Assembly (NCBI GenBank): GCA_900708905.1
Contig: CAADRB010000058.1
Span: 718,545 to 782,544 of the forward strand
Direction: 5' to 3'
Length of the DNA stretch: 64,000 bases
Source of the DNA: Hymenolepis diminuta
Taxonomy: Eukaryota > Platyhelminthes > Cestoda > Cyclophyllidea > Hymenolepididae
The notes beneath the pieces were generated by a model, which was given only the letters and a program-made list of their open reading frames with translations, did not search any database and was not told where the DNA came from. The position numbers and the translations under genes are program-made. Of the stretch, positions 7,496 to 64,000 are shown piece by piece. Position 1 is the stretch's first letter, and every line of letters starts with the position of its first letter.

Positions 7496-8713
7496 CAGCT
7501 GTTTCATGAGTAATAGGCGCACTAGATACCACAATGTCACTTCTTTGTGTATACATTCGACTCTTTTTTTAGTTTTTTCTTTTTCTTAAAGTTGCTGGGG
7601 TAATATAGAGTCAGCTTTTGAATCTGCAAACCGCATTAATTTATTTACTATTTGTTAACCATTTTCTTTTTTGCTATTGACTTTTCGCAGTTGTTTGGGA
7701 TTTCAGCTACATTATTTTAAGGCATTTTTATGAGTATGTAGTAGTACAGTTTAGCCAGTAACTTCCTACCCTAAAATAAGTTTATTTTAACTAGTTATTT
7801 ATAAAACAAAATATGGAAAAACTTCGTGTGTTATGAGGTTTTATTTGGACTTCATTTTGCATAAGCCTCCATCAGCAATTTCTCGTAACTCCGTAAACCA
7901 GCTGTCCTGAGTTTTGTAATGGCAGTTCTCATTGATCTTGGAATCAATTTGTGGATATACTTCCGTAACTGCCCTTCACCATCCTACCACACGGTCAACT
8001 GATTTGGGGATTTCGTAGCTTTCAGATAACTTGGCACGTTCATGAAAATGTTAACGACTGGAGATCTTCATTACGTTATAATCTATTTCTCAGCGTTACA
8101 TCAATGGCTAACAAACAGAAAGCGAGTCGAACTGTGAAGTTAAAACTAATGTAAGCCACTGTGCATGTTGCTGGTAAGCTAATCTAGCGACCTCGCCAAC
8201 CAATACGAAGCACACACACAACACCCAGATTGGACCAATGGGAAGCTAACATACGAAGACACACATCTTCGGTCTCATGCTGCCTGGTAGTGACTATTAT
8301 GGCAAGATGGTCGCGTCTCACTGTTGTACTCTTTAAATCTTCTTTGTCCATTTTTCTATCGTTCACTTTCATATAGACATCTATGCACTTACGTTCTACA
8401 CTGCTTATCTATAAAATGCCCATTAGTAAATGCGCTTCCTAAACTGCCTTTAACCAGGAGAAATTTTAGATGGAAAATGTGATGATGGTCACTAATTCTG
8501 ACATTGTAAATATCGTCTTTATTTGAACTGGCAATCGGTAGCACGAAAAAACGAACCACTGAGAAGTTTTGATAATGTCAAAAATTAGCACAATAAGAGT
8601 GAATGTCATCACCACTTTATAGGTTTGCTTTTTTAACTTCACACTTTAACTGTAGAACGATATCGTAATGCAATTTTCCATAAAATTATTCCAAGTTCTT
8701 TTCACACGGAGTC
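7496..8713. other. UXS1 3' flank, no gene seen
   Basis: AT-rich 3' flank of UXS1. It probably contains the 3' UTR, but no canonical AATAAA was seen. A short block at about 8030-8075 (TAACTTGGCACGTTC..GACTGGAGATC) recurs near 10150 and 49600 and belongs to an unclassified interspersed repeat. A short CA-rich tract lies at 8210-8225. Confidence 0.45.
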
Positions 8714-25000: not shown

Positions 25001-28000
25001 ATGTTTTTTTACATGGGAGATCTGTATAGTGATAGCTGCATCTGCTTTTTGTGCCAATTACGGTAAATCTGCCAACGAATAACTGATCGAACGAGAACTT
25101 TTTACTCCTATACACTAAATATATGACATTAATAAGAAAAGTCCTTGAAGATGTTTTTTGAAAGTAGGTCCACATTTTGGATTACTTGTTTGTAAACGCA
25201 ATGAAATGAGTAAATTAGGCTGACTTCAAGTCCTATATATTTGATATTTTACAAATTAGTTGGCATTTGAGTGAACGGATGTTTTTGATTAATGATTCAA
25301 TACCGCCATTAATCTAGCGCTTTTTTATAGCCTGGCCATCTTAGAACCCGCCTTTTCGTTCTTCCGTCAATTCATCTCAAATTTAGTCACTAAATGAAAG
25401 TAAATTTGATCAAACCAACTTCCCTCCGTACTCACCTGTAAGCGATGTCAAATTTGTAGGCGCAAATCTGCAAATATTTTGAATATCTGATCATCTTGCC
25501 TATTAAGCGTCCTAATTTGTGAGAGCTGGTCCTATCCCAATGACTGCCCTGGTTCTATCGCTCGGAAAGTTATTAGACGCAAAGGAGATTGATTACTGAT
25601 GATAGAGATGACTGGGAGTGGGAAGTCTGGCAAATCCGCTCTTTATTTACCAGAAACTAAGCTTATATATAATTTGAGAATAGGGGAGGATGTCAGTGAC
25701 AGATTGGGAACATAACAACTAATTCCTGTGATGATACTTTGACTCCAATTGGTAAAGATAGCTCTATATGCTCTCATCAATGTCGATGACTCAACTGAAG
25801 ATTTTCGAATCGCTTGTTGTACGTCCCAAGCACGTTGATAAGCTAGCAACTTAGTTGATGCCTGTACGGAAGCACACGTCATCAAATTAATAACATGAAC
25901 GCAGAGCGTAGACTAATAGTGAAGCCAAACATGGGACATCAATGCGGTCACTGACTCATTTAGAACATATTCTCAGCATCATGCTCCTCGCTCATAGTGG
26001 AGGATTACGGTCATGCTGACAAGATGTCTGCTTTCTTTCACCCATTGTACACTTTATGCTTCTCAGTTCTTTTTCCATTTTTTATACATTTTTTAGACTG
26101 GATACTCTTAACTTGCCTTTACTATTTAGTGTCTTAGTTAAACCCTATTATGACCACCCTTTCTACAATTGCCAGCATTCTGAGCACAGTTTGCGCCTGT
26201 CATATCCTATCAATTGTCGATTAGAGCTGTAAACCTGTTGATTAGCTAGGCTATGCTATACGTTGTTCTGCTCTATCATTAAGTTTAACATTATATCCTC
26301 TCTCCCTTTAGACTGCAACTGGAATGGAATGTGGCGAAATTAAGCCCGACCTCACACCCTGTCTTCAAAGAGTTGGCAGTAACGAAGATCAACACCACCA
26401 TCAACAACAACAGGCTTCCACCCTCTACACGGTCACTCAATCAAACGTCACTTTTCTTCAGCCTGACGCCACCACGGCCGCAAGCAACGCCAATTCTTCT
26501 GCTTCCACATCCAACCCCTCTAACTCTACAATTACTACTCAAAATGAAATAAGTAGCGGATCTGCTAACAGCTCATCAGGAGGTCCTTATCAGTGCACAA
26601 GCTGTGGAAAGGAGTTCAGAGTACTGCGCTATCTCGAGAAACATAAGAGGATACACACTGGGGAGAAACCCTACCAATGCTGCTTCTGTGGACGTCTATT
26701 TAACGATTGGCCTAATATGAATCGGCACAAGCGCATTCATACCGGCGAGAGGCCCTATCGATGTTCAGAGTGCTCCAAGACGTTCTCTCAGCCCGCGGTG
26801 TATAATGAGCATGTGAAGAGGCATACTGGCGAGAGGCCTTATGTGTGTACGGTGTGTTCGAAGGGATTTCCGCGGGCTGCTAGGCTCTCCGTTCATATGA
26901 GAGTGCATACTGGGGAGAAACCCTATCGGTGTAATGTCTGTGATCGGTGTTTCAGTCAACCGCATCATGTCTCTACGCATATGTGAGTTTGTTTTCCCTT
27001 TTATTGTTTTATTGGCCAGTTTAATGGTTTTAGTTGCTAATTCGAGCAGTGCTTTTGGCATTGAATATTATATTCCTTATATGTTCTTTTTTAGTGGTGT
27101 TGTTATTTTAGTGTCATACCCAATTAATAACTGTGAGATGGCCATTACATCATTTTTTATTGATCCGTCTTTTGTAAAAATTAAAGGCATCCAAAGCTTA
27201 AGCATATGAATTTGTTGTTCATTATGTTTGTGGAACGGGGATCTTACCGATTTGATTTTGGCTTCCTCCTCTATGAATATAACACTTGAATATGAATTTT
27301 CTTGATTCTTCCTAATCATAAGGTAATTATCACAAACCCTGGATGAGCCGTTCTTTGAAGTTTCTTTTAGGTGATCGAATAACTCCCGAAATAAGGGATT
27401 TTATCTTTTCTCAGTAGATTAAAAGTTAGTTTTCAAATTAGTGGTGATCTAGTTTTGCACAGGGAAATTATTTGACATATTTTCGACTTTTAGATAGGCT
27501 TTATTATAGTTGCTTGCTTCATTCATTCATTGTGAAGTTAATTGGTTCATGTACCGAGTGATAAAGTAATCTCTTATTTTAACAAATCGAATAATTTAAT
27601 TATTGTCCAGAAAAAAGGGTTGTGATAAAAACAGACACTGCATGAGTTTTTGTTCGAAATTTGAAAGTACATAATTATTCCCTTGCTGTTTCCCTAAATC
27701 GCTTGAGGGTGCATTATGGAATCCGTGGCCTTAAATTTTACACAGCAGTTCGTGTCAGTCTTTACATCTATCTGATCATGCAATTCTACAATGATCTTTC
27801 ATTATCTTTACACTTGGACAAAATCCCGATTTTTGTCGCTTACCGTTGGGTCATCTGCTCCCAAGTTGCATTTAGCATCCTTTTCCTAAACATGTGTTGC
27901 TATTGATGAATTTGAAGTAGACTAAGCTATCAATCTTGTTAATCACTACTGAAGCACTTGTCCGTTTGAGGACCAATATGGACCAAGGAGAAGTTATAAC

Positions 28001-37500: not shown

Positions 37501-38200
37501 ATAACCCATTTAGGAGAGCGTTTTCAAAGGGTCATCTTGTTTAGAAAGTAATGCCATTGAGACTCTCTGATGTGAGACTTGAATTCTGCCACCATATGTA
37601 TTAACCAGACTTGACTATTGCGGTTGGCTATTCCACACACTGGGTGTACGCCTCTGAAAATCGAACCAGCGGTCTATGCCATAAAAGGCATGTACGATGG
37701 TCAGTGAACCACCGAGATTTACGCAAACTTGCTTTCAACATTTTTCGATTAATTGTTCACATTGTAAAAATTTTGGAGATTTAATAAAATAAGAACTTCT
37801 GAATCTATCTGACTGGATCTATATTCTCAGGATACAAGACAAAAATTCTTCCAAAGACGAATGTATTTTGAAATTATATCATATTTTGTAACTTCAGAAT
37901 AACACTTTTCATCCGTTTCGTTTTAAGCAAAAAATAGAAGCAATTTTAATTTCATACAATTTAATACTGAATTAGTCATGATATATAACACAATACGTAC
38001 AATGTTATAATTGATTGCAAAAACTAGATATTCCATATAAAATATTTATTAAGTTAAAATGTATTTAGCATATATTTGCTTTACAGTTAATTAACAATAA
38101 TTTTCAAGCTAATGAAACCATACAATTAAATTCATTATTAATTTAAAAACTAATATTTTTATTTGTGAAATTTATCATGGATATCGACATTTGTTTTCAA
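34514..38200. other. Intergenic region with low-complexity DNA
   Basis: No gene seen. Contains an AT microsatellite at 35741-35765. At 36180-36440 there is an LTR-like stretch: TATATAAACC near 36300, AATAAA near 36322 and a TGTGGCCCCGC near 36400 that resembles a primer site. That reading is weak because no second copy was found. A SINE copy lies at 37.56-37.74 kb. Confidence 0.35.
37555..37735 (-). repeat. tRNA-derived SINE-like repeat, copy 2
   Basis: On its own strand: GGTGGTTCACTG (A-box side), GCTGGTTCGATTTTC (B box GGTTCGAtt), then ACACCCAGTG, GGAATAGCCAACCGCA and GGTGGCAGAATTCAAGTCTC. The second half matches the copies at 5.9 and 52.7 kb. Confidence 0.65.
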
Positions 38201-38249: not shown

Positions 38250-38808
38250 ATGGTAGGTGGCTTTGTCGGTTATGTCATGGTTTTCTTAGTCTCTTATGTT
38301 ACCAGAGAAGTTTCAACACATTCTTCGTGTTATGAACACGAATATCGATGGTCAGAGGAAGATTGCCTATGCTCTTACTGCCATCAAGGGTGTCGGTCGT
38401 CGTTATGCTACCGTTGTGTGCAAAAAGGCCGATATTGATGTCCGTAAGCGGGCTGGTGAACTTAGTGAGGATGAAATTGAGAAGCTTGTTACAGTTATGA
38501 CAAATCCACGCCAGTACAAGATCCCTGATTGGTTCCTTAACAGGCAAAAGGATATTGATGATGGTAAACACACACAAATTCTCGCTCAAGGTGTTGACAG
38601 TAAACTCCGTGAGGATTTGGAGCGTCTAAAGAAGATTCGTGCACATCGTGGTCTCCGTCATCACTGGCTGTACGTTTTCTTGATTGTTTTATAACTATTG
38701 TATGCACTTTATTGGGTCATTTTTTACTACAGCCTTCGTGTTCGTGGTCAACATACCAAGACTACCGGTCGCCGTGGACGTACTGTTGGTGTATCTAAGA
38801 AGAAGTAA
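38250..38808 (+). CDS. RPS18: 40S ribosomal protein S18 (uS13), three exons
   Basis: Component of the small-subunit head that contacts the 5S/uL5 bridge and P-site tRNA. Exons: 38250-38252 (the ATG alone), 38290-38669, 38733-38808; 459 nt, 152 aa, the length I recall for human RPS18. The protein starts [15 protein letters not shown], then [49 protein letters not shown] and ends [12 protein letters not shown], all hallmark blocks. A 37-nt intron directly after the ATG codon gives the expected SL start, so the 38296 ATG is not the start. The 63-nt second intron uses donor gtacgt and puts Leu where I recall Gly after the conserved Trp. The gene stands alone between repeats. Confidence 0.97.
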
Positions 38809-48597: not shown

Positions 48598-51500
48598 AAT
48601 CCAGAGGTTATCTTGCGCCTGATTTTTCAGGGTTATTATTAGTTAGATTACTTTAAAAAGTTAATCAGGCTTAATTGTAACATTAAATTTCAACTTCTGT
48701 TATTCGAATCACAGCATAAGTTCATCTAATTCGAGAAAATGCAATCTTATAATAAAGGCAAAGAAGATATATCTGTTCGACCATGAATATATTTTCAGCT
48801 ACTCTGAAAATCTGCAAGAATTTAAATAAAAATAAAAGTAAAAAATAAGCTTAAATTTTGTTAGAAATTAGTTATGTTGAAAGCATCACAAATATTGGTG
48901 TTAACAATTATCTAGGTGCAATCATTTGTTTACATGTATGTTGTAATTCATTAATGTATTTGTTCGCATTAATTTTAAAGACACGAGATTTGATAACACT
49001 TGAGTCGATTACGTCAAAAATGCCTCATTATGACACAGACGTGCGAGAATATGAAAATAATCCGGTTTAATATTTTGTCTACGTGATACGAGAGTATCTA
49101 AACCAATTACAGATCAAAAAGACGAACGAGTTTGAGAATATAAAAGACATAAGTTAGTAATGTGTACAATACACCATTATCATAAAGAAATATTGCTTAA
49201 TTTCATATGAGCTATGGTATAAAAAAGTCAAGTTAAGAATTCACCATATTCTGGGAGTAAATGTAAGTTTTTTCCGCAAAAAATACAATTAAATCAGATT
49301 ACGCCTATGTTCGCTAACTCAAGAAACTCTACAATTAAATTAACCATCAGTGACTGCCTTTTGAGAGAATTACACAAAAACTATGTATGGTAAATCTTGT
49401 TCAAACATTCGATTTGGATAGGAGAGAAAGCTTAAATAACTTAAGGTTTCATAAACTATTTGGGACACTATTATAGATCCTCTTGTTTAGTGTATTGAAT
49501 GGCGGTTCTTGGCGATCGATCTGAATATATACTCTGTAATAATCAATTACCATCTTTATATAAGAACAACTGGTTTTCAAACATCATAGTGTGCCAATAA
49601 CTTGACACATTCTTGAACTTTAAACGTCTGGAGATCATTATAGGAAGTTACTTTTTAAACAACCTATATGTACTCAAATAAGCCTTCACCTGCGATTTCC
49701 TAAAGGTTAGAGCATTCTCAGATCGAACTCCTCTTTATCCATTGACTAGCTGTGAATATCAAATTATGTCTGGATCTTTTTCTGTTGTTAATCGATATGT
49801 ATGGTAAATAAAAGACAGACTAAAGCTCAAAGCGCATACTTTACGGAGATGAGTCTTAAGTAACAATGATCCAGTAACTAAAACAACTTTTAGGGGCCAG
49901 CCCAAATTAGACTGGATGTCTCCGCACATAATTATCAGTCCTTCTAAAGGCAAACAGTAAGTAAGTCTTTCCTAACATGCGAAAATCAAGAGCTAAGTTA
50001 AAAGTGAGTGTATTAGATAAAAACAAGAAACGAAAGAAAAAGGGTGAAGTAGAAAGAAGAAATGATAATTGGAAGAGCAAGAAAAGGAGCGTCATCGCAA
50101 GAGAAAAAAGCGTTTTGATCAAGAGACCATTTTAAGGAGTACTAAGTGGGTTTATCTGTTTTAATTTCATTATACGTTTGACTAGGAGCTAATAAAAATC
50201 ATTATCGAACAATTAGAATGGCGCAGACGTGTCTTAACATGTGGATTCAACTAAATGCTACAAGTGTCCTTACACTCTCTTCACAAAATGTCGGATTCCC
50301 ATTTGACTAGCTAGTTCAGTCAATTTATTAAATTTCAAGATTGACTATTTGGCTAACTTTCCTAATTGACTTTGAAATCAATATACGTAGACTTTCGAAT
50401 CCTAAGTGAAAAGTAAATAAAACAAAGATTTATCAAATGTAAAAGAATTATAAATTGCAATGTAAGAATTATGTTAGTTAGTATTAATTGCTTTCTCGGT
50501 TTAAAAAATTGCACTGAAGTGAAGCGATCTTATTAATCACCCGATCAATAAATAATAGACAATATTTTATCACGCGATTCGGAGAAAAGATCATGAAATC
50601 CTTGTACAACCTGAATCCAAGAGTCAAATGGAATAAAACTCTCTTGGCACTCCTTTCGATTTATTCTTAGCTTCTCCCTTTACCTACGCTAAAAAATTCA
50701 CTGTTACCTGATTTTCGTTGCTATCCAACCATAAAAATATGTAAATGTTTTGTCTTGTGCGTTTCAAAGGTAATATAAAATGTATATTATGTTGAAAAAA
50801 CGCCTTTACTTCACTACGCTATCACTTCATATAAAAGCTGTACTTGCGATCTATCTATTTTTGGCGATGCCTCCTATGTAATTTCACCTTTCCTCTCATG
50901 TTACTTTTATGATGCCATGGATTCTCACAAACGCCATTATTCGTATCATATTTCCTGCACCCCATTAATAGAAAGAAAACCGAATTAGTTGATAACCTGA
51001 ACAGAAATCATAACTCTGCGAACAGAGTTCATGCCTTGAGCACTGGATTTTTCGATTACTATCTTCTTATTCTTGAATCCAGGAATAAAATATATTCGTT
51101 GTTACATTGCTGGCTAACCAGGTAGCCAAAACAAATACACTTTTCAGATGTCTTCCTCATTCTTCCTTAAGAGTTGGGATACCATAGCGAATGGACCAGA
51201 TTATAAATATACATTTATTACACAGTCCATTCTTTGTATAGTGCATGTTTGACTGGTTTAATTGTATGATAAAGTCTGTCTGATACACGCGAAACTAAAA
51301 GGACACCACTTACATACATCTGATGACCACAATTATGTACAGTAATAAAAAAGATGCGAATTTTTGGCTGTAGTTGTTTAAATAAGTGCAATCTCTTCAC
51401 CTTGTGGTACTAGCACCAGCTTCATCGTTAAGGTATGATCTTGTGACTGGTCCTAACCAATGTTGGGGCAGGGGAAGGGAATTCGTCTTCATCTAACATG

Positions 51501-52077
51501 ACGAACGTGCAATAACCTTATGAAATTAACCAATGAGAAGGTGGCCTAGAGTGCGCTAACATTATACAGAACTGTGTTGTTGAATTTTGGGAATTATTTG
51601 AAGGATTTTTTCTATGTCTATTCCACTCACAAGACTCTATGAAAAGCAACAACTTAATTTTCACAATCCGGATATAGAAAAAATATCTGTGTTTAGTTTG
51701 ACTTTGGAAACTTTTGTGCGATAAATCTTATCTCCAATTATGGAATACTGATACGGCCGAACTACGGTCAACTCAGGGTCGGAAATTGAAAACTGACATG
51801 TAACAACTTTGAGACTGCCTACTGACTAAATGTGGCACTATATCTTCATACTTCTACCAGAGAAACATGAACCAATAGCAATTGATATGTACGGATGATG
51901 TGACCGAATATGATCCATAAATAGTAGTTGATTTGGCTGTGCCGCGGAGATGAAAATGAACGTGAAAATGAAATGTACAGTTTCTGAGTAATGCAGCACA
52001 TTTATCCTTCTTCTAATTAACAGACGTGGTTAATCGATACAGTTTATGTTGATGAAAAATAATGCAAACACATTAAC
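48598..52077. other. AT-rich region, no gene recognised
   Basis: Contains a copy of the short repeat at 49571-49650 (CAAACATCATAGTG then TAACTTGACACATTCTTGAA). ORF 49759-49953 (-) contains CGDIQSNLGWPL, similar to the (S)GDIExNPGP motif common near the start of LINE or 2A-bearing proteins, but nothing else supports a LINE. A purine-rich stretch encodes the lysine-rich ORF below. Confidence 0.35.
49977..50135 (+). CDS. Possible 52-aa lysine/arginine-rich micro-ORF
   Basis: ATG at 49977 opens a 52-residue frame, more than a third Lys and Arg (KNKKRKKKGEVERRND, WKSKKRS), ending at TAA. The cause may be only the purine-rich strand composition. No homologue recognised. Confidence 0.15.
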   Translation: MRKSRAKLKVSVLDKNKKRKKKGEVERRNDNWKSKKRSVIAREKSVLIKRPF

Positions 52078-52204
52078 CTTCCCCTTATCAAATCATCAGT
52101 TATAACTGAATCGAAGTTCTCGAAGTCATAAATACGATTAATACATGGATGATCAGGTGTCAAGAGGGGTCCCAAATAAATTTGAAATGATTGTTGATAC
52201 GTTT
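52078..52204 (-). pseudogene. Unidentified coding-like block (possible exon)
   Basis: Minus strand: acceptor tttcag before 52204, then ETYQQSFQIYLGPLLTPDHP and, after a gap, IYDFENFDSVITDDLIRG, then a weaker donor gttaat. Composition is protein-like. It may be the last visible part of the minus-strand gene at 54-59 kb. Confidence 0.35.
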
Positions 52205-52674
52205 CTGAAATGACACAATTTTTGCCTTTTTCAATTATCAAGGTGTATATAAATGGCAAAATTTAATAATTCAATAGGAGCCGTTAATCTTGATTCATAA
52301 GGAATTTCATCAATATTTAACGATGCAGAAATTAATAAGAAAAAAGGCAATGAAAAATTTAAAAAAGCTGATGAAGGACATATATATCATGCTTCTATAT
52401 AAAATTGTTTCTAATTAAATTGATGTTACTAACTTTAATTTTCTAGTCGTGTGTTTTATAAATTATTCGGGACTATCCAAAATCCCCTGAGGTACGCTTT
52501 ATAATAATATTGCCGAGCTCCATATATACATGGACACACCGTTATGTCTGCCAGACACCTTGAGGGATATCAAGGTGTCGCCAGATAACCACGTTGTTCA
52601 ACAATCCTTGACAACTCTGAAGCTGTAAATGACATCTAATCTCACTTTGGAATGCTCAAACAGAGTAAAAGAAT

Positions 52675-52850
52675 GGCCTCGGGTAGTTTCGCTGGTGAGA
52701 AACATGAATTTTGCCACCTCTGTTAGTCAGGACCTTGTTAGTGCGGTTGGCCATTCCATTCACAGGATGTCCACCGATGAGCACAAAATCTGTGACCACT
52801 AATCTTACACACGAGCACAATAACCACTGTGCCACCAGAACCCAAGACCT
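52675..52850 (-). repeat. tRNA-derived SINE-like repeat, copy 3
   Basis: On its own strand: TGGTGGCACAGTGGTTATTG (A-box side), AGTGGTCACAGATTTTGTGC (B-box side), then TGGACATCCTGTGAATGG, AATGGCCAACCGCACTAAC and GGTGGCAAAATTCATGTTTC. It matches copy 2 along the body and copy 4 (24.5 kb) in the tRNA part. Confidence 0.65.
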
Positions 52851-54100
52851 ATAAGCACATTACTGTAAACTTATCCTGATCCACAGCTTCTATTACCATA
52901 GTAACTCTTGTATTCATCTTCTATATCAGGTAAGCGACTCTTATCTAGCCAGCTCTTACTGTTAACCTTATCTACCCTACCATCAAAGATGGAACAAGCG
53001 CCAACCACGGAATAGCGCAATTTCCGACAACCTACTTATCTATCTGTACCTACCTCTCTCAACTTTCTTTCATTAAATCTCTATTTATTGTGAGTTTCGT
53101 CTGATACTTGTTTATCTGCCATGACAAGATGACATGCTGACAGATACAGAAGCTGTGCTTATCTGATCGGTAAGGATAAGGAACGAGTAGAACAATGCTT
53201 TCATCATGCACATCCAGTTTCTCTTAGCTGTCGATATCCTATAAACGGGCTATCCATTTCCTTAGATCTTATCTCTATATTCTGCGTTCGCGAAATTGCA
53301 TCAGGTTTAAGTTCATTTATTTTACTCATTGGATGCTAGAGAGCATAAGTGAAGAGGTTTTCTTCGAAACTGCTGTCAACTTCTTTAAAGAAAGTCCCAG
53401 ATTTGAATAAATAGCTTTACCGCAATCGGCCCTTCTTCTAGAAGAATTGACTGTATCCATCAAGTGAGAGTAAAGTTGGCAGAAATATAAACCTAATTTA
53501 AATAAAAGACTTCAGTTATGTGATGAAATTCGTTCCTTAACTGAACTGTCCTATACATCATATAGTTACCCTTATCCACTAATGTGCGATCGAATTTTTG
53601 TCAAACAATCTTATTCACCCACACGCTAATCATAATCATGCGGCCATGATTACTCAGTGATCCCGTTAACCTTACAAAAAATTGATCCCCTATTCTAAAA
53701 ATGAACCATCGTGTATCTTTACAAGCATTGTGATAGGTATATTCACATATTTACTCATACGGACAGTACCTTTCTTATCTTGCAACTCAGTTTGTTGCAG
53801 TCTCATTCAATTCTTTCTTAGAATTTAGCTAAGAAATTAGGTATACTATGCTTAGAATTATGGATAAGCTCTTATTAATAAAACTACTTCCACAGGTGTG
53901 TTGTTATAAAAGTAACAAGATATAAGACTCACATAGCCACCACTAAATACTGTGGACAGTTGGCAGTTTCATCAGGACTTGGCTGAAATATAAAAGCTCT
54001 TACCAGTTCTGGTAATGGTAAAATTTGATCCCTTTTCACTTTAAAAGACTACCACGAATATAAAATTAAAAAGCGAAATTCTGTAAACCTTTTTTGAATT

Positions 54101-54506
54101 TCAATCAAAGTGATGAATTTTTTTGAGAAGGGCCGACGGATGTCTCGTTCTAGTAAATTGAGTGGAATACTGTTTTAGACTTAGGGCCTGGTGAATTCTT
54201 CTTCGGGTAGTCGTACAGATTTTCATTATAATTTGACACCTCCAATTGGCAATTAAGAATGCGATAGATGGAAGAAATAGAAAATTTACACAAAAAGCCA
54301 CATCAGATTGCTTGAGATTTAGGGCAATATTTTGGAGCATACTTTGATGATTACCACGAGCAGGCTTTTCCTTAATGAGTCGACTAGAATTCATTTGACA
54401 AAACGTTATTGAATTCGTTTGAAACCCTGAACCGTCAGAAGAAAGGAATGTTGTCAGAGAGTCAGTTAAAGCAGTGTTTATATCCCCCAGAGTCTTGATA
54501 ATTTCC
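54101..54506 (-). pseudogene. Unidentified coding-like block
   Basis: An acceptor tctag before 54506 opens a frame EIIKTLGDINTALTDSLTTF that joins the ORF 54394-54101 (SRLIKEKPARGNHQSMLQNI, then LKQSDVAFCVNFLFLPSIAF) to a TGA. About 135 codons in one frame. No family recognised. Confidence 0.4.
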
Positions 54507-54763
54507 CTAGACTAGTAATAATTTACCAGATGAGTTTGATCAATTATTAATAGATCAGAAATATAAATTATATTTATATATATTATATTTGTTTAACTTA
54601 CAAATTTCTATTGATCAACGACCAAACTGTGAGGAATAAGCCCATTGCTGCCCGAAATCTCTGAATTTTACTTATTAAAAATTTGGGAAAGAAGTTGGAT
54701 TTTATATTGAGCACTAAGCCCCTCAATGAGAAACCCAAACGATTTTTATCTTTAAATTGGAAT

Positions 54764-55132
54764 TTAAGAAAATGGAAACATTCTTTGATATAGTGACTGC
54801 GCCAACTTTGTCTGAAAACGATTAACTGTTATAGAAGGTATTTCTTCGGCATTTTCGACTATCGCTTCTATCATTAAGGAGAATGGTAGCATATTTTCCA
54901 AATCACCTAAATTAATTCCATCTATCACACCTACCAATTTGGTTGTCATCTAAATCACAGAAAATTCAGTCATATTTATTTGAAGCTATTACAATTATGA
55001 AAATCTAGTGAAACCCGTCATGTCAAAAAATTTTAAGCGAGTATCATTCATTAGAAGAGACACATGTACTGAGCTGTCACAATCAACCTCTTGAGTCAGA
55101 TTAAGATCAATCTTTTCTGTAATTGCATTCAT
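54764..55132 (-). pseudogene. Unidentified coding-like blocks (two possible exons)
   Basis: Block 55132-54995 reads MNAITEKIDLNLTQEVD.. and contains HVSLLMNDTRLKFFDMTG. After a probable intron ending tgatttag, block 54952-54764 reads TKLVGVIDGINLGDLENMLP and NRFQTKLAQSLYQRM. Both have normal protein composition and an acidic/hydrophobic alternation. Function unknown. Confidence 0.4.
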
Positions 55133-55527
55133 GAACTAACAAATCCTGAGAAATGAACCTTGAATTATTTTTTCATGAAGAAATAAACTATGCCTATTGA
55201 GCAAAATATGGAGATCTGATGAATGTAGACTTTGAAGGAAGTAAATTATTTCGATACCCCGAAAATTCACTTCTTCTATTCCAGTCCCTCTTTAATTTGA
55301 ATTCAAACCTCTACAGAATTCTCCGTTTTTGAGCACTTCCCAATGGCTAAAACATGTGAATGTTTTTGTGAAATACATATGCTGTGATACCTGGAGTTAG
55401 GATGTGCTGAAAACATATCCGCTTATCTCTTGACCGTATGAAGAAATATATGAATTGAGGTGTCCTGACCAACCACTAACTAAACAAAATGGTCAGTAAG
55501 GTCTGAATGCCGCTTACATTAACTCGT

Positions 55528-56045
55528 CTAGAAACTTAGGAGTTGAATCATGAAATGTGAACTTTTGAACACTGATGAGCTGTACCACTTGTGAGAAAGT
55601 GGGAATTCAACACAAATTTCAAATAAAGCGAGACTGTTAATGTTTCTACTTTGTTCTCTACTTCTTCTCATCCCATAGTAAAATATCTTTCTGTTCTCCA
55701 TGTGTAAATGCTTTCTCAAAATTATGATTTGTACTTTTTGGGTTGTCATGGAGTTAATGATAAAAATAAATATAAATCTTACTTTAACAGCACTGTTTCT
55801 TCTTTCGTTGGACGTGCCAGAATCAACCGAATGTTTTGGAAAAATCTGAAGGTGTATAATATAATAATACTAGTCACTGTTTTACTTCACTGTTTTACTT
55901 CATCTAAAATATAATTTTTCAAATGAACGGACAAATATTGTAAAATTTCTGATACAGCCATCAAATTAGAAGACGAAATTGTAATTTCAGGTAGATCATT
56001 TTTCCCTTCTCGTATTAAAATAATTTGCTTATCCACATCTTGAAC
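55528..56045 (-). pseudogene. Unidentified multi-exon coding-like region
   Basis: Three or four blocks fit GT/AG exons. 56045-55899 (VQDVDKQIILIREG.., ending NYILDE) has donor gtaaaa. 55845-55783 (IFPKHSVDSGTSNERRNSAV) has acceptor ttcag and donor gtaaga; the two join in phase 0. 55714-55662 (AFTHGEQKDILLWDEK) and 55633-55528 (LALFEICVEFPLSHKW..) are separated by a possible 28-nt intron, 55634-55661. The first block starts in a different frame from the ORF upstream. Confidence 0.45.
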
Positions 56046-56508
56046 CGTTTGTTATTGGAACTAATAAAATGGCATAAAAAGATTCATGTTCATAGGTATA
56101 AACATTATCTCGTGATATGATTTTGGCCAGGCTAACCATAATTTGCGGAAAATACTGATCAACGTAGAATCTGGACTCCGGTAAGCTACGGATGCAAGAA
56201 ATAACTGATTCTTCTATCTCTGGAATTTTGGTGCATAATGAAGGGATTGTAATCATTCCAATAATTCTTTGAGTAACGGAAGGCTAAATTCTCATTTTCT
56301 TATCAAGGTCTTTAATAAACCTACTATAGAATTCAAAGCTTCCATTTACCAGGGTTGGACATGTACACTCAGTACATGATATCCATCTGACTGCTAAATT
56401 TGAATTACGCTTCGTACACAATTTATGTACCGCTCCAACTGTCATACAGATCATCGTTGAAGATCTATTTGATTGGAATAATAGAAATTCCAGTGAGATC
56501 GTAAGCAT
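56029..56508 (-). pseudogene. Coding-like block of 160 codons with one in-frame TAG
   Basis: A single minus-strand frame from 56508 to 56029, interrupted only by a TAG at 56284-56286. Second half: ITIPSLCTKIPEIEESVISC, then PESRFYVDQYFPQIMVSLAK, resembling a helical repeat. First half has several Cys (TVGAVHKLCTKR, WISCTECTCP). It could be a decayed exon or two exons. Not identified. Confidence 0.45.
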
Positions 56509-56594
56509 ATTGTATTTTCAAATTTTTAAATCAAATTACATTGTTGTTAAATTCAATTATCTGCATACTGTAACATCTCATTTTCACCCAGATA

Positions 56595-57229
56595 TCAGGA
56601 GTTTCCGGAAGGAGACTTAATTAGACTTGACCAATGAGGTAAGAGATCTTGCGGACGGATGATACCATTACAAAGTCCTGTCAATACAATATGCTCCAGA
56701 GACGTAATTTCATTTTTCATGATCGAAGAAATAGGCCTTAACATTTTGTCAGAGTATTACATATAGAATTGGCAAGAGCTTACTCTATGAATAATTATTT
56801 TTGTGTGTCTTCACCTGTTATCAGAATACGTTTGGTCTTGATTAAACGGATATGAGCTATTTTCGTAGCTTATCACATCTAGAGCGAGATGTGATCTCGG
56901 TGCACAAAGATCTCCTCCACTTAATGGCGGATTGTATATTACCGAAAGAATTCATGTTCTATAAAATTTTAAAAAATAATTGGGAACGGCGGTCATGATC
57001 CAGTCTCTGCTGTGGACTGTGCCATTTTCATTAAGGATTTGGATGCCTGATGAATCGGCCCAGACTTCTGGAGGAGAATAACCGTTTTGGGACTTGAACC
57101 ATATCTTCACGGAAAATGCATGCATATTGGTCCAGTCCCTGGTTTCGTTACTACTTCAATGAATGGAATAGCAGTAAAAGATTGTCCAACTCCACCTATA
57201 TCTAAGGCTTTGACTTGGTATTTGTCTCT
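56595..57229 (-). pseudogene. Unidentified coding-like blocks with a frame shift
   Basis: From acceptor tgtag at 57230-57231: block 57229-57110 reads RDKYQVKALDIGGVGQSFTA and FIEVVTKPGTGPICMHFP to a TGA. The adjacent frame then continues 57110-56952 as KIWFKSQNGYSPPEVWADSS and ENGTVHSRDWIMTAVPN. Block 56756-56595 reads MLRPISSIMKNEITSLEHIV and LCNGIIRPQDLLPHWSSL. The shift at 57110 splits what looks like one beta-rich domain, which suggests a pseudogene or an assembly indel. Confidence 0.45.
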
Positions 57230-57696
57230 CTACAGTTAAAGAAAAATCTTTTAAGCTTGTTGAATTATTTCGCTAGAATACTGAAGAAATGTGACTCAAT
57301 TCCTCAGGATAGATAATAGCATCTTCACTGCTAGGTAGTGTGTAGGTCTAAATAGTTGAATTAGGCTAATACAGCACAGTACAGTAGCATCTGTCAGATA
57401 GACGCAGAGAGAATTAATGCAGAAAATCATAATGAGCCCCAAGTTGTGGGAGAGATTTGATATTACAACAAGACGGTCGCTTCCTCTCACCTTTTTTTAG
57501 TGTTTCACTTTCCCACCTTTCATAATCTTACGGACCTTCGTATCATTTCATTCTAAATGTTTTTCAGTGCCAAATCCTTATTTTGATGACCTCGTTTCCT
57601 ACAGCCTATTTGGCTATTAGCATCTTGACGGTCGGAGCTTAAATGCATAGCCAGAGATGGAATTAAATTTTAATAAAATTTCTGCATGATGTCGGG

Positions 57697-58135
57697 TTAG
57701 CTTCCCTTGATTTCTTCTTTATCTGCTTTAATTAGGACTTTGTAACCAAATATCTTAAAGGACATTATCCTTGAAATGACTCCCGTCGACTTAGAAACGT
57801 AGTTTTTCCAGTTGAAAATAAATTTTAATGCTTTAATAAGAGATCGACTAAAGTTGTGTATTGTCTAAACAATTACATTAACTTATTGGATGATTAAGTA
57901 GAACTTCTTCCGCTGGACGTTTTATACATATTTAGTAGTAGTTGCGATCCGTCACACCCTCAGTTCGCCAACGTACTCACGATAGTTGGCCATGGATTAT
58001 ATCCATGCGCGTTATATAATTATTCAAAACATCAATTGTAGGGAACAGTTCTCCACTTTCGATTAAATAATCGAAAGAATTAACCATGCATAATGCTATT
58101 TCTCCCATTTCAAAAGAACATAAAGAAAATTTCAG
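57697..58135 (-). pseudogene. Unidentified coding-like blocks (possible exons)
   Basis: Block 58135-57981 reads CSFEMGEIALCMVNSFDYLI and ELFPTIDVLNNYITRMDIIH, and ends at a strong donor, gtgagt. Block 57864-57697 follows an acceptor tgtttag and is open for 55 residues (HNFSRSLIKALKFIFNWKNY..). The phases do not match, since the first block ends with two codon bases, so the join is uncertain. Confidence 0.4.
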
Positions 58136-59018
58136 TTACTTTCCGACAATAAGGATTTTGAATTTTATATGCTTAAAATTCAGAAAACCGTATATTCAAA
58201 ACTCTCTAGGCCTATCAGTTCCAAAAACATCTCTATTTACCCTCATTCGATATTTATTTTTACCCAATTTTAACTTGAACATAATTAATTAAGTAATTAC
58301 CATGAGTTCTTTCTTTGATGTCCTCAGCATACTACCTCTATATATTCGTTTGAATCTAACTGAAATGACTTTTCTTTTTAAGACCCGATGTAGTTACTTC
58401 ATACATATATGCAAATATTTCAAATTCGGACTATATTTCATTAATTTTGACGGGCTTTATAAAGGAAAAATCCCTAGTCTAAGTAAACACTGTCTTATTT
58501 TCAGCCTCCTCTTTTTTGTAATTGGACGATTTAACTATTTTTACAATTATGTCTATTAAGACATTAGTCATGGGCAGAGAAATGACATCCTAGAAAGCCT
58601 GATTAAGAAAATCGCTTTCTACTATCGCCGTGTTAGTCAATATCAGTTAGACAGTCCCATTCAGTGAATTTCGTATAAATGGTTTTCAGTATCGTTACCT
58701 ATGACCTTGTTTCCACTAAGCCATCGTCGCATAAAATTTAATTTAATTAACATATCTAGATTCGTATTATGGCCCATCCTAGGGAGCAGTATATTGACAG
58801 TTAGTGCATATTTAACTGCAGTCACGGGGAGATCGTTTACAGAGGGTTCAAAAACCCATGGTAATTAACTGATCGTTCATGGTTGTAAATGAGCAGTAGA
58901 CCTAATTTGTCTCTTTCTTATTCAAATTTTGATAATCTAAAGTGATACATTATTCGGATCTCTCCAAAGAATCTTTTTTACTATTTAATAAAATCATTCA
59001 ATTCTATATATATTTCTG

Positions 59019-59310
59019 TTATGTTATAAAAGCAACTTCTTCACCGATTGTTAAATGTTCGAGAACTTGACAAGTTATCTTCATATTATAAAGTTTGGAA
59101 GGCAATTGAAAAACTACAAACGTGGCGATGGATAGTTGCAGAAGTACGTACTCAGATCAATGCAAAGAATGGGCCTGCAAAACTCAAGGCCATAGATGTC
59201 ATATTCTGAACCAATTTGACCGGACTGGAATAATCTAATGAGACAATTTTGCCTGTGTCCTTTTCCAGCTTAATTCCTCTATCAATACGGTTATTTTGTG
59301 TTTGGTGACC
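59019..59310 (-). pseudogene. Unidentified coding-like block with a single-base frame break
   Basis: After an acceptor attag, 59310-59155 reads RIDRGIKLEKDTGKIVSLDY then LVQNMTSMALSFAGPFFALI and stops at TGA. The next frame continues at once as YVLLQLSIATFVVFQLPSKL then NMKITCQVLEHLTIGEE. Both halves look like one protein broken by one extra base near 59152. This is the most upstream block of the minus-strand set. Confidence 0.45.
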
Positions 59311-59319
59311 CTAATAGAT

Positions 59320-62300
59320 ATGGTCGCGTAAATCCCTACATTCAGTCTTCCTGGATGGTTTGTATTATTAAAACTAATTTCTTACAGTGAAGACGTCTTC
59401 TTTCTGACCATCTACCTCTCAAATAGAGCTAGTATTTAGATATACTCTAGGGCGGTCAGGAGGCATAAATAATAGGCTCTGTAATGGAGCTCAAGTAGTT
59501 TAAGAAACTGCAATCAAATGCTTGACAACAGCCCGATTTTCCAACCAATTAAGAATAGGGTGTTACTGTTCAATCCATCTCTATATTGTATTAGAATCAT
59601 GATAATAAAAGGACTTATTTTCGATCAAAAAATTAAGTGATGGTTGGTCGTTCCTTTGTAGAACATATAAAACTTTATATCCAATATTGATAACCAAACC
59701 GCATTTGAAAACCTAATTGGCAGGGCATTTGAATCGAAACTGAAAATTAAAAGCTGCTTCTCGTATTTTCTTCAAAGCTTTTACACATTCTACCACCTAA
59801 TTAAAAAGGTATTTCAATTTAGCAACATTTTCCTTGCATGTGAGGTCACTTGAACAAGGAACCTTATCCAAATTTGTGAAATCTAAAATGTATAAAATCG
59901 GCCCTACTAAGGATGTATGTTATCATCTGTAAAACTGTGTAGCGAAATGAATATAAGTCATTTATAATTAGGTTTTATATATGGGAATATCTTCATTTTA
60001 TGTGTATTGTACCGTTAAAAATGCAGTTTATTTCAGAGAAACCAAAGTAAACACCGCATGATTAAGAAATTTATCCATTTTAACTCTCATTATTAAGATA
60101 ATTTTAAAACTTGCTAGATGATTCGTTGTATAATAATTTAATAATAGATCAATGTATGTCTTATCATATTGGGCGGTTCCTAAATCGATATTTTTAGGAT
60201 TTTTGAAATCGTAAATGGAACTTCAAGTCAAATTTGTAAGTGCTTAAAATGGGAAAAACTTTGCAATATCATGAATGAAATAATACTCTCATCTCTGCTA
60301 TGTTAAAAACGTAAGTTGCTGAATATCGTGTAAGATTACCTTGCTTTCTTAAGCATTGAAAGAGAACTTAACTGGAGTGACAAGACCAACCCATCTGTAT
60401 TAAACAACTCGTCAATGAGCACTGATGCATGTATGCAAGCATTTGCTACAATCCAAGGGACGAATCATGATAACGACGGTAGAAAACCATTTATAAACTA
60501 AACATCTAATGAAGTAAGACCTCGATAACTTGACGTTGCTCTCAGCATCTTTTGGACTCCCTCTCCATTAACCGATTTCTAACAAATAAAAATTTTACTA
60601 CTGTGGGTAAAAATAGTGATTAGTAGGAGGTGAAAGGAGAAGAATGTATAGAATTAGATGACAAAGCTCAGTAGTTATGAAAAGAAGAAAAAATGTATTT
60701 CTATAAAATGCACCTCAGATGATTAGTCCTCAATCTGAATGGAGAAGACTGTGCAATATGCATTGACTTAAAAATGTCAGATGAATCGCACCAAGCAGTC
60801 ATTTTATACAGATGGTTTCTATAGCAAGTTTAATGTGAACAGTAGTTAAAATTTCGCAAGTGAGAAAGATTTACGAATTCATAGGAAACTACATGAGAAA
60901 AGATAAAAAGACAAGTTACATTTTAATGAAAAGGCGTAGAAATCGGTTTATTAATGACATTGGAGCTACATTACCGTCCAGTCTTTCAAATTTGATCAAT
61001 TCTGATGCATATTCTCCTCTCCAATTAAATGATTTTGAATTAGATATTGTAATGCGAGATTGATTAAATGCAAATGAATGGAATCTCAAAAATTAGCATA
61101 AACTCCAATTTTCACCCACTTGTCTCGAAAACTAAATTCCATTCGAATGCTTTCAAAATCTCGGATAAACAACCACATGTTGTTGGAAGAAATCAGGATA
61201 AAATACGCATCGATAAATCAGCTCTTTAGATGTCGGAAAGCAGGACCGATTTATTATAAAAAATTAAGAAATTCATAATGTACATTCACTGTCACTCATA
61301 CCTACTTAATGTCGTCCGTACATTAAGAAGATTGCTTAGAAGTAAAGCAAAAGTAAATAGACACGGTGAAGTCTCTTTAGCCGTTTAAAAGGGTAACTCA
61401 TTAACTTTCCTTGAAAAATTGTGTACCTTTACATTAATATTGAGTAAATTAAGCAATTATTCACTATTGTTGGAACAATCGTGAAATCTTCAGAGCTGTT
61501 GAGCAGAGCTTTGACCTAGATAAAAGTTATATTCATCAATCTCGTAAATTTTATAATTTCAATAGTTTTGTCTTAACCTGGATATGATGATGATGGTACA
61601 GATTAGGTATACCTTCTAATTAAAAATTTAATTATTTTACAATTAAAATGATTTTATATCTACGGAAGTATAAATGGCCACTCAATCTTTAATTTGCTCA
61701 CTTTAGAACACCGGCACGGTTGTTTTAAGAACAAATTAGAACTACGTTAAGTTGCAATGAATGCAAATCGACACCCAGTGCAAGCACTTACCATCTCCAA
61801 CTATAAACGTTTCAAAATATACCGAACCGGTGTAGTGGATCCTTAATTCTCAAATCCCTTTTTGTATTCACATTATCTGAGATAGCAACGAACGTGACTA
61901 AGCTAAGTCAGCTCTTTCGATCGATCCATGCTGGCCCTCTAGCATATGGCTGGGGATGTAACGGTCGTCATGACTCAACTCGAACCATCAATTATTCGAT
62001 TCGGACTTTCTCACAACGCCTCGAGAATATCACTGCTGCCAAGTCCCAATCCATACACTCCAATTTCTGCGTTTCCAGACCGTCCCCCATATAAAAAGCC
62101 ATGTATACATGCACCATATCGGCTGTGACTGCTACATTCATTCCTCATATCTCGGCTACTCACACGCACTCTCCCATGGAACCTGGTCCTCTCCTAATAA
62201 ACTCTGTTCAGGACTGTCTTGCCACATATCTTCATATTGTCATAGTGAAATTGTACAAGGCAGAAGGTAAAGTTCGAAGAACAGATGGGGATCAAAATCA

Positions 62301-64000
62301 GATACATCCTTCTAAGCAAACATTCTTAGCGACTGAAACTCTTTCCTTCTCAAAGCTAAGTTTTCATATCCTTTGTCCTTCACTCATCCTAAAATATAAT
62401 TTTTATTCTGAAATGACTATCAATTAATTCTTTTTCTTTCTCACAGATGGACTAAATAAGATAAATATTTGAGATGAAATTATGAATAAGAATGAACTGG
62501 GGGTCCAGAAATTTTTAATTATTATAACATACACAGTTTATTCTTCATTCACTATAATTATCTTAAAATTATAATTTAATGTATTGGCTAGTTTTATCAC
62601 ACAGGAGGAAAATAGCTTATTTAAATTTCCTATCTGTGAGAATTTCTCTGGTGGTCATGGTGGCATGATCTCAGAATAATTTAAGGGCAACACATGCAAA
62701 TACAAAAAAAGATTTTCGCTCTAGATTATTGGCCCCACGAGATTAAAAAATAACCAATTCGTATTTCACATACGATTCGTATATAAAAATGTATACCTTT
62801 AAATATTACGATTATCAAATAGGGAGGAAGTTAATGTAAATCTCTCTTGAAAAGTATATCTCTGACGCTAGAGTTATATTTGGCCCTATTTGGTCTTAAC
62901 ATCTTCAGGATAGGTGAGAAGTTTATTTCTATTAGAAATTAGTTTTCACGTCATTTGGGGACAATTGCGCTGATTCTAATGAACGGAAATTCGAATTCTT
63001 TTGCAGTTTCATGATCACATGTTTCACGATCCAACTCTAAGTTGTCTGATGTCAGAAGAAAGTTGAAATTTGAAAATGCAAGAGTTTAAAGAATGAGTGA
63101 TTGCACCATCCGCATCTACATTCGCTCAAAATGCCCTTTTATCAACGTGAAATTTCCAAATTATTTTTTAATTAATTGATTTGGAGAGCTTATAGTTTAT
63201 ATGCGGCAAAATTCAATTTTCTTCTCGAATAATGACCTAAGTAAATTACTGCATAAACAGACCTTTCGATAATTTTAAAATCTTTAGAAGGGTTCGGAAG
63301 TTACATTTATCATGTTCAACCATTTAATGATTTAACTATGTTAGATTCGCTGGCAGAGTCCTAAAACTACTCAATAGAAAAGTACGCGACAAATTGCACG
63401 TCTGCGAAGACAGATATCATTAAATTCAGTACTGTATTGACTATTTGTAAAACTGGACTATGTAGCCGTAATTCAGTATAATGCTACCGAATAAATTGAG
63501 AAATTAACATGGTAGCGGAAAAGGAAAACTGCTGTAATCTTTTGCACAGTACTGAATGGAAAGACCTTTCATTTCCTTCCTGCTGACTTAAACGTCAGCA
63601 GTTTTCCAGCTAACCATTAACCTGTTCAAATCAATATGTAACCGGCATAAAAGTCTAGTTAACCTCCGCCAAGGGAAAAAATTAGAACATTTGAAATCAA
63701 GGGGAATTGAAAATGTGCTATGTACGAGGTAACAGACCACATGATCGGTGGTTTTAAATGGTTTAAACAAGCATTGAGATTTTTTAATTTGGAAAGCGGA
63801 GATATGCATGAATTTTATTTTGTGAAGATTGTTTTCGAAATATTGCAAAGCATCTTTGCGTTATCTTCAACAGTCAGTTTTCGATATTGGTTCTTTATCA
63901 TAAAAAAGTAGAGTTTAACTTGTTCTGTTAGAAGACAACATCACAGTCCTGTGTTAACATCTTTAGCAAGCCTAAATCGTGTTGAAAAAGGAAAGAGACA
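59320..64000. other. Right-hand region, no gene recognised
   Basis: AT-rich sequence with small ORFs lacking family resemblance: 60860-61063 (+), 61894-62427 (+), 63588-63848 (-), 63720-63911 (+). At 61956-62224 a more GC-rich stretch has a TATAAAAAG (about 62090) and an AATAAA (about 62198), an LTR-like layout, but no partner copy or primer site was found. Confidence 0.3.
60360..60640 (+). repeat. Interspersed repeat C, copy 2
   Basis: Partner of 11440-11780, same orientation, sharing ATTTGCTACAATCCA and GAAGTAAGACCTCGATAaCTTGACGTTG. Confidence 0.55.

What the first reader, a model, noticed from the sequence alone, without database searches (positions are those of the whole stretch)
52078..59310. 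Hidden minus-strand gene or fresh pseudogene of unknown family
At least ten blocks of 21-160 codons on the minus strand have protein-like composition and sit between plausible acceptors and donors. Some join in phase (56045-55899 to 55845-55783). At least four breaks occur: an extra base near 59152, a shift at 57110, a TAG at 56284, a shift near 56040. Together they look like one large multi-exon gene, part helical and part beta, decayed or damaged by sequencing indels. It is the largest unexplained coding signal in the window.
Basis: partly seen in the sequence, partly recalled or inferred. Interest (0 to 1): 0.75.

Follow-up and report, generated by a model that had tools for sequence, protein, structure and literature searches.

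The report
Broken polycystin-1-like gene in tapeworm
The minus-strand coding blocks are the remains of a dead, intron-containing copy of a tapeworm gene family related to polycystin-1; unbroken copies sit elsewhere in the same genome, so the find is real but ordinary.

Summary
The blocks are real: minus-strand exons of one gene, recognisable from about 59.79 to 53.12 kb (not to 52.08). A protein-to-DNA alignment with a paralogue scores 1095 on this strand, against at most 246 on controls. The family is known: four other copies lie in the same genome, and relatives include a Hymenolepis diminuta GPS-domain protein, E. granulosus "Polycystin 1" and a Taenia GPS protein. PMC5327563 (passages) already describes a cestode-only expanded GPS family related to polycystin-1. 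Three copies show 0-2 stops or shifts per template alignment. The window copy shows 7-14 and a second dead copy, on C168, 7-16. Six breaks recur with all five templates compared, and no clear GPS motif is left. Four introns fall exactly where the C63 paralogue has them, so it is an unprocessed pseudogene. Whether it died recently is open: synonymous sites are saturated. The species, H. diminuta, is inferred.

The parts
59615..59789 (-). first recognisable exon piece (N-terminal ectodomain), with an in-frame stop at 59715-59713
   Evidence: tblastn of P0001 E 1.4e-4 and P0002 E 1.1e-4; HSPs of 59712-59584 to C63 E 5e-6 and C129 E 5e-5
57980..58135 (-). weak block matching a middle ectodomain exon
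   Evidence: HSP to C63 E 0.018 only, but colinear
56955..57229 (-). ectodomain exon broken by a frame shift at about 57110
   Evidence: HSP 57155-56955 to C63 E 4e-4; both halves align to one exon of C63 and to P0005 above all 100 shuffles; weaker with C3, not with C129
56325..56756 (-). ectodomain exon remains, with an in-frame stop at 56597-56595 and frame disorder around 56555-56476
   Evidence: HSPs to C63 E 3e-12 and 1e-6; lesions with C63, P0007 and the C3 spliced model
   Evidence: HSP to C3 E 1e-7; exon end 56137 with every template
55899..56060 (-). exon of the helical part, with an in-frame stop at 56054-56052
   Evidence: C63 E 5e-5; stop with all five templates
55783..55845 (-). 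small exon joined in phase to the previous one
   Evidence: used with P0005, P0006 and P0007
54602..54949 (-). helical exon and degenerate continuation; frame break(s) within 54793-54731
   Evidence: HSP to C63 E 2e-11; break with all five templates
54290..54511 (-). exon
   Evidence: HSP to C63 E 1e-8
53933..54239 (-). exon of the beta part; break at 54152-54150
   Evidence: HSP at 54048-53932 to C3 E 2e-6; break with all five templates
53421..53492 (-). exon; break at about 53443-53437; preceded by a 440-nt intron where the C63 paralogue has 34 nt
53124..53382 (-). last well-supported exon (just before the place of the GPS motif); stop at 53338-53336, frame breaks at about 53224-53206 and 53172-53153
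   Evidence: HSP to C63 E 2e-9; tblastn P0001 E 6e-11
   Evidence: blastn 71-73% to window 37564-37647, L052 and L044, E 8e-5 to 1e-3

Best explanation
An unprocessed (intron-retaining) duplicated pseudogene of the cestode polycystin-1-related GPS protein family. The gene arose by duplication and its closest relative found in this genome is the C63 copy. It diverged for a long time under coding constraint and then lost function through in-frame stops, frame shifts and loss of the GPS motif. It makes no full-length protein now. Shown: homology, colinearity, four exactly shared intron places, lesions. Inferred: duplication mode, order of events, absence of function, species (Hymenolepis diminuta).
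For: Paralogues on C63, C3, C168 and C129, best 55% identity over 42 residues. Colinear exon matches. Score 1095 against control maxima of 232-246. Same aligner and settings, stops + shifts with P0005, P0006, P0007, P0002: window 7, 8, 14, 13 over 565-836 aligned residues; C3 1, 0, 0, 0; C129 2, 2, 0, 0; C63 2, 1, 1, 2, over 970-1268. Breaks at 56054, 54152, 54793-54731, 53443-53437, 53224-53206 and 53172-53153 recur with all five templates C63, C3, P0005, P0006 and P0007. The C3 copy splices from 19 exons to 1247 codons without a stop. Four of ten window introns (56136-56061, 55517-54950, 54289-54240, 53932-53493) match C63 introns exactly in residue and phase. Tree: window with C63, support 95/96, branch 1.66 against 0.60. 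Window-only changes by codon position 49/56/38, against C63 31/15/37 and C3 23/15/32; chi-square of the window against C63+C3 16.8, p 2e-4.
Against: The codon model shows no significant rise of omega on the window branch (0.164 against 0.126, log-likelihood gain 0.28), and neutrality over the whole branch is rejected by 11.8 units; branch lengths are saturated, some at the fit's bound. C129, which reads almost cleanly, also has even codon positions (34/33/34), so relaxation is not unique to the window. Columns were chosen for window-C63 similarity. Outside the strong blocks the fit is loose, so the total of lesions (7 to 32 by template and penalties) is uncertain; six of ten fitted introns do not match C63 exactly. 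Both C63 and C129 keep one frame break under stricter settings, so the yardstick copies are not all perfectly clean. No expression data were available.
Confidence: 0.92

Rival explanations
1. A live gene whose frame was broken by assembly or sequencing errors (long-read indels).
For: The genome looks like the hybrid Illumina/Nanopore H. diminuta assembly (contig C1 6,937,183 bases; longest scaffold 6937 kbp in PMC6890685, passages). Several breaks are of the indel type.
Against: C3, C129 and C63 in the same assembly have 0-2 breaks per template over 970-1268 aligned residues. The window copy has in-frame stops as well as shifts, and no clear GPS motif.
Confidence: 0.04
2. A partly functional remnant: a truncated protein or a non-coding transcript from the locus is still used.
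For: Most of the branch evolved under constraint, and an open stretch of 136 codons survives at 54511-54101.
Against: Breaks are spread over the gene, and a protein search with the window's pieces returned no Hymenolepis protein (3 hits, Echinococcus and Taenia; the search is limited to candidates sharing short words). No expression data exist here either way.
Confidence: 0.04
3. A processed (reverse-transcribed) copy or a transposon.
For: The C168 copy is also broken, so dead copies are not rare.
Against: Introns are retained, four of them exactly at C63's places. No Pfam family, transposon or other, reached its cut-off in the blocks.
Confidence: 0.005

Closest known systems
Cestode-specific expanded 'GPS motif-containing protein' family, related to polycystin-1 (PMC5327563, passages)
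   Same: Sequence homology; P0005 (E. granulosus 'Polycystin 1'), P0006 (Taenia asiatica) and P0007 are GPS proteins without a PLAT or channel hit
   Different: The window copy is broken, lacks a clear GPS motif and sits on a long branch. That P0005-P0007 belong to the very family of that paper is inference
H. diminuta GPS domain-containing protein P0001 (the C3 copy)
   Same: Same family; C3 splices to an open frame
   Different: 33% identity to the window copy on selected columns; keeps a GPS-like end (Pfam GPS below cut-off, E 0.018), and the annotated protein ends 8 residues after CECTHSTIF
Full-length polycystin-1-like protein of flatworms (P0003, Mesocestoides corti; own-genome copy at C1:2725244-2741132)
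   Same: Homologous pre-GPS region in C3, C129 and C63
   Different: P0003 has GPS, PLAT, polycystin and channel domains; PLAT and channel were not found at the window locus
Sea urchin REJ / PKD1 family (SpREJ8-10 with one or no TM; PMC1934368, passages)
   Same: Precedent for channel-less PKD1-family proteins
   Different: No Pfam REJ hit here

Membership tests
Cestode GPS/polycystin-1-related family | Sequence homology to unbroken members | tested here: met
Cestode GPS/polycystin-1-related family | Shared intron places | tested here: met
   4 of 10 fitted window introns match C63 introns exactly in residue and phase; three more lie within 4-8 residues; the three most 5' do not match
Cestode GPS/polycystin-1-related family | GPS motif (C..W...GC...CxCxHL; motif recalled) | tested here: not met
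   No W...GC follows 53124 in frame. A scan of 56000-50001 minus gave one CxCxH, at 53148, which is out of frame with the aligned exon; a weak scrap at 52848-52809. So it is filed as a pseudogene of the family, not a member protein
Cestode GPS/polycystin-1-related family | Open, spliceable reading frame | tested here: not met
Polycystin-1 proper | PLAT and PKD_channel domains at the locus | tested here: not met
   Family searches of the whole genome (8 and 15 matches at E <= 0.001) give none at the window, C3, C63, C129 or C168 loci; exon-by-exon search could miss small exons
REJ module | Pfam REJ domain | tested here: not met
   No REJ hit in window blocks, paralogue exons, P0001-P0003 or P0005-P0007; divergence may hide it
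GAIN/GPS fold of adhesion GPCRs | Sequence match to solved GAIN/GPS chains (tested on relatives, not on the window copy) | tested here: inconclusive
   ADGRF1 at E 2e-4 with P0005 and with the profile of five relatives, GPS region only; the C129 model matched nothing at E <= 10; the structure model was unusable
Pseudogene | No transcript or protein | not testable with these tools
   No expression data

The most novel reading that the evidence does not exclude
In hymenolepidid tapeworms this family has become a set of secreted, channel-less polycystin-1 ectodomains that end at the GPS and turn over by birth and death: three working and two dead copies beside one full-length polycystin-1. The window copy is one of the casualties, which would suggest fast turnover at a recognition surface (gamete or host side).
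Probability: 0.25. Interest if true: 0.4.

Novelty: new member of a known kind. Interest (0 to 1): 0.15.

Why it matters
It also shows that the cestode polycystin-1-related family, described as expanded in Echinococcus, includes dead copies in what is probably Hymenolepis diminuta. Whether the working copies there (C3, C63) keep a membrane anchor after the GPS is a small open question.

Tried and rejected
Pfam and PDB searches with the window's own frames and blocks gave nothing above cut-off (Pfam and the window blocks; PDB, E <= 1): the family is divergent. The paralogues found by tblastn in the same genome opened the case. I considered Integrator subunit 7, tuberin, focadhesin and MED14 from memory and dropped them: no tool result supported any. 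Chance open frames were rejected by the controls. Transposon or retrocopy was rejected by the retained introns. The branch-specific codon model was uninformative because of saturation. The AlphaFold model of P0007 had mean pLDDT 39.8 and was not used for fold searches. A protein search with the window pieces found three Echinococcus/Taenia relatives (7142 candidates) and one with the C63 model found only P0001 (capped at 7993 candidates); both are limited to candidates sharing short words. Papers: searched for the family; among the titles listed, PMC5327563 is the one whose passages treat it in cestodes. Not every listed paper was opened.
Full report
What was checked. The finding describes minus-strand coding blocks at 52078-59310. 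The window lies at C144:718545-782544 of a 170.6-Mb eukaryotic genome held in 203 contigs. Pfam scans of the three minus frames (52000-59500) and of single blocks gave no family above its cut-off (and the window blocks), and phmmer of 54000-59500 against the PDB gave none at E <= 1.

How it was solved. Pieces of the blocks, searched by tblastn in the same genome, hit themselves and four other loci: C63:1073371 (55% over 42 residues, E 8.5e-7), C3:5195532 (39%, E 6e-4), C168:528822 (34%, E 0.003) and C129:53309 (41%, E 0.05). Comparing open-frame fragments (18 codons or more) of window 40001-64000, both strands, with those of these loci gave 48 rows at E <= 0.02. Of 17 minus-strand fragments, 14 form a colinear series from 59796 to 53207; three lie outside it (60464-60339 with C168 at E 4e-6, 52848-52741, 48422-48096). 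Of 14 plus-strand fragments, 6 mirror exons of the series and 8 do not. Comparing C129 with the other paralogues gave still stronger series.

Controls. A protein-to-genome aligner that allows introns, frame shifts and stops (written here) scored 1095 with the C63 protein on the window minus strand (50001-64000). It scored 232 on the plus strand, at most 234 on 20 Markov shuffles and 158-246 on three other 14-kb stretches, both strands. With P0005 the values were 704, 169, at most 216 and 163-220.

Identity of the family. The C3 model found four proteins: P0001, a 'GPS domain-containing protein' of Hymenolepis diminuta; P0002 of Rodentolepis nana (named OVOS by its source); P0003 of Mesocestoides corti (GPS, PLAT, polycystin and channel domains); P0004 of Macrostomum (best 7994 candidates scored). 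The window pieces found P0005 'Polycystin 1' of Echinococcus granulosus, P0006 of Taenia asiatica and P0007 of E. granulosus. P0005-P0007 pass the Pfam GPS cut-off and have no PLAT or channel hit; P0001 is below the GPS cut-off (E 0.018) and P0002 has no hit. The GPS region of P0005 matches adhesion receptor F1 in the PDB (E 2e-4); the C129 model matched nothing at E <= 10. PMC5327563 (passages seen) reports a cestode-only expanded GPS motif-containing family related to polycystin-1. In this genome the full-length polycystin-1 relative is on C1:2725244-2741132, apart from the five loci.

Species. The spliced C3 copy and P0001 align in two stretches of 615 and 460 columns with 7 and 15 mismatches plus gaps, the gaps reflecting different exon choices. 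H. diminuta is therefore an inference.

Damage. With the same settings, stops plus shifts per template (P0005, P0006, P0007, P0002) were: window 7, 8, 14, 13; C168 11, 16, 7, 12; C3 1, 0, 0, 0; C129 2, 2, 0, 0; C63 2, 1, 1, 2. Under stricter settings with P0006, C3 had none, C129 one and C63 one. Six breaks in the window recur with all five templates C63, C3, P0005, P0006 and P0007: 56054, 54152, 54793-54731, 53443-53437, 53224-53206 and 53172-53153. The stop at 53338 is seen as a stop with C63, C3 and P0007, as a shift with P0005, and is avoided with P0006. Further stops (56597, 59715) and the shift at 57110 appear with some templates. Totals range from 7 to 32 with template and penalties, so only the recurring ones are firm. 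No GPS motif follows 53124 in frame: a scan found one CxCxH at 53148, out of frame with the aligned exon, and the scrap at 52848-52809 was not tested against chance. The C3 copy splices from 19 exons to 1247 codons without a stop.

Introns. Aligned to the C63 protein, 4 of 10 fitted window introns sit at C63 introns exactly, in residue and phase (residues 442, 507, 725, 841); three more are 4-8 residues off and the three most 5' do not match. This argues against a processed copy.

57110: the two halves of the exon lie in different frames and each beats 100 of 100 shuffles with C63 and with P0005; with C3 the second half is equalled by 5 of 100, with C129 the whole by 10 of 100, and P0007 aligned only the second half. 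The TAG at 56284 is the acceptor end of a 41-nt mini-intron, and C3 (40 nt), C63 (34 nt) and C129 (41 nt) have mini-introns there, although the window's two sides no longer join in frame. The 'shift near 56040' is intron 56136-56061, chosen with every template. I found no homologue covering 59152.

Evolution. In 456 columns selected for window-C63 similarity, identity was 47% to C63, 33% to C3 and 31% to C129. Window-only changes fell on codon positions 49/56/38, against 31/15/37 (C63), 23/15/32 (C3) and 34/33/34 (C129) (chi-square of the window against C63+C3 p 2e-4). A codon model on 452 codons found one omega of 0.134, no significant rise on the window branch (0.164), and rejected omega 1 for the whole branch by 11.8 log units, but branch lengths are saturated and partly at the bound. 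In a tree of ten rows (C168 not included) the window joins C63 (95/96) on a branch of 1.66 against 0.60; the program flags that branch as long. I read this as a long functional history followed by death; the date is open.

Mechanism. A duplicated, intron-bearing gene of a receptor-like family that decayed. Inference: no product of full length. Working relatives would be cell-surface or secreted ectodomains with an autoproteolytic GPS region; this rests on family knowledge and was not tested here.

Verdict. Real blocks with an ordinary explanation: a pseudogene of a known cestode family.

Noticed in passing
G000:C168, about 525500-536500 (L044, L050): A second broken copy of the same family: 7-16 stops and shifts per template, as dense as in the window.
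   Followed up: partly
L047 (C3:5202443-5202518 and on) and L049 (C63:1077926-1077988): Read straight on, the C3 and C63 copies stop shortly after the GPS (C63 reads CECDHLSQFS then stop), whereas P0005 and P0006 have one strongly hydrophobic stretch after it (peaks 2.5 and 2.1). Hydrophobic open fragments do lie downstream (C63 near 1079518, 2.24; C3 near 5202562, 1.99) and were not tested as exons.
   Followed up: partly
window 60339-60464 - and C168:542565-542786 +: A 22-residue match, 59%, E 4e-6, outside both family genes as modelled; unexplained, perhaps a repeat.
   Followed up: no
G000:C7:616776-666760: Fourteen plus-strand PLAT-domain matches within 50 kb, probably one or more multi-PLAT genes.
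   Followed up: no
window 53493-53932: This intron is 440 nt where the C63 paralogue has 34 nt; no copy in the DNA at hand, whole-genome search not answered.
   Followed up: partly
window 52689-52802 and 37564-37647: Degenerate repeat-like match, about 72%, E 8e-5, also in two stretches near paralogues at E 1e-3.
   Followed up: partly
window 38290-38694 + and 26312-26986 +: Ribosomal protein S13/S18-family exon and a C2H2 zinc-finger exon.
   Followed up: no
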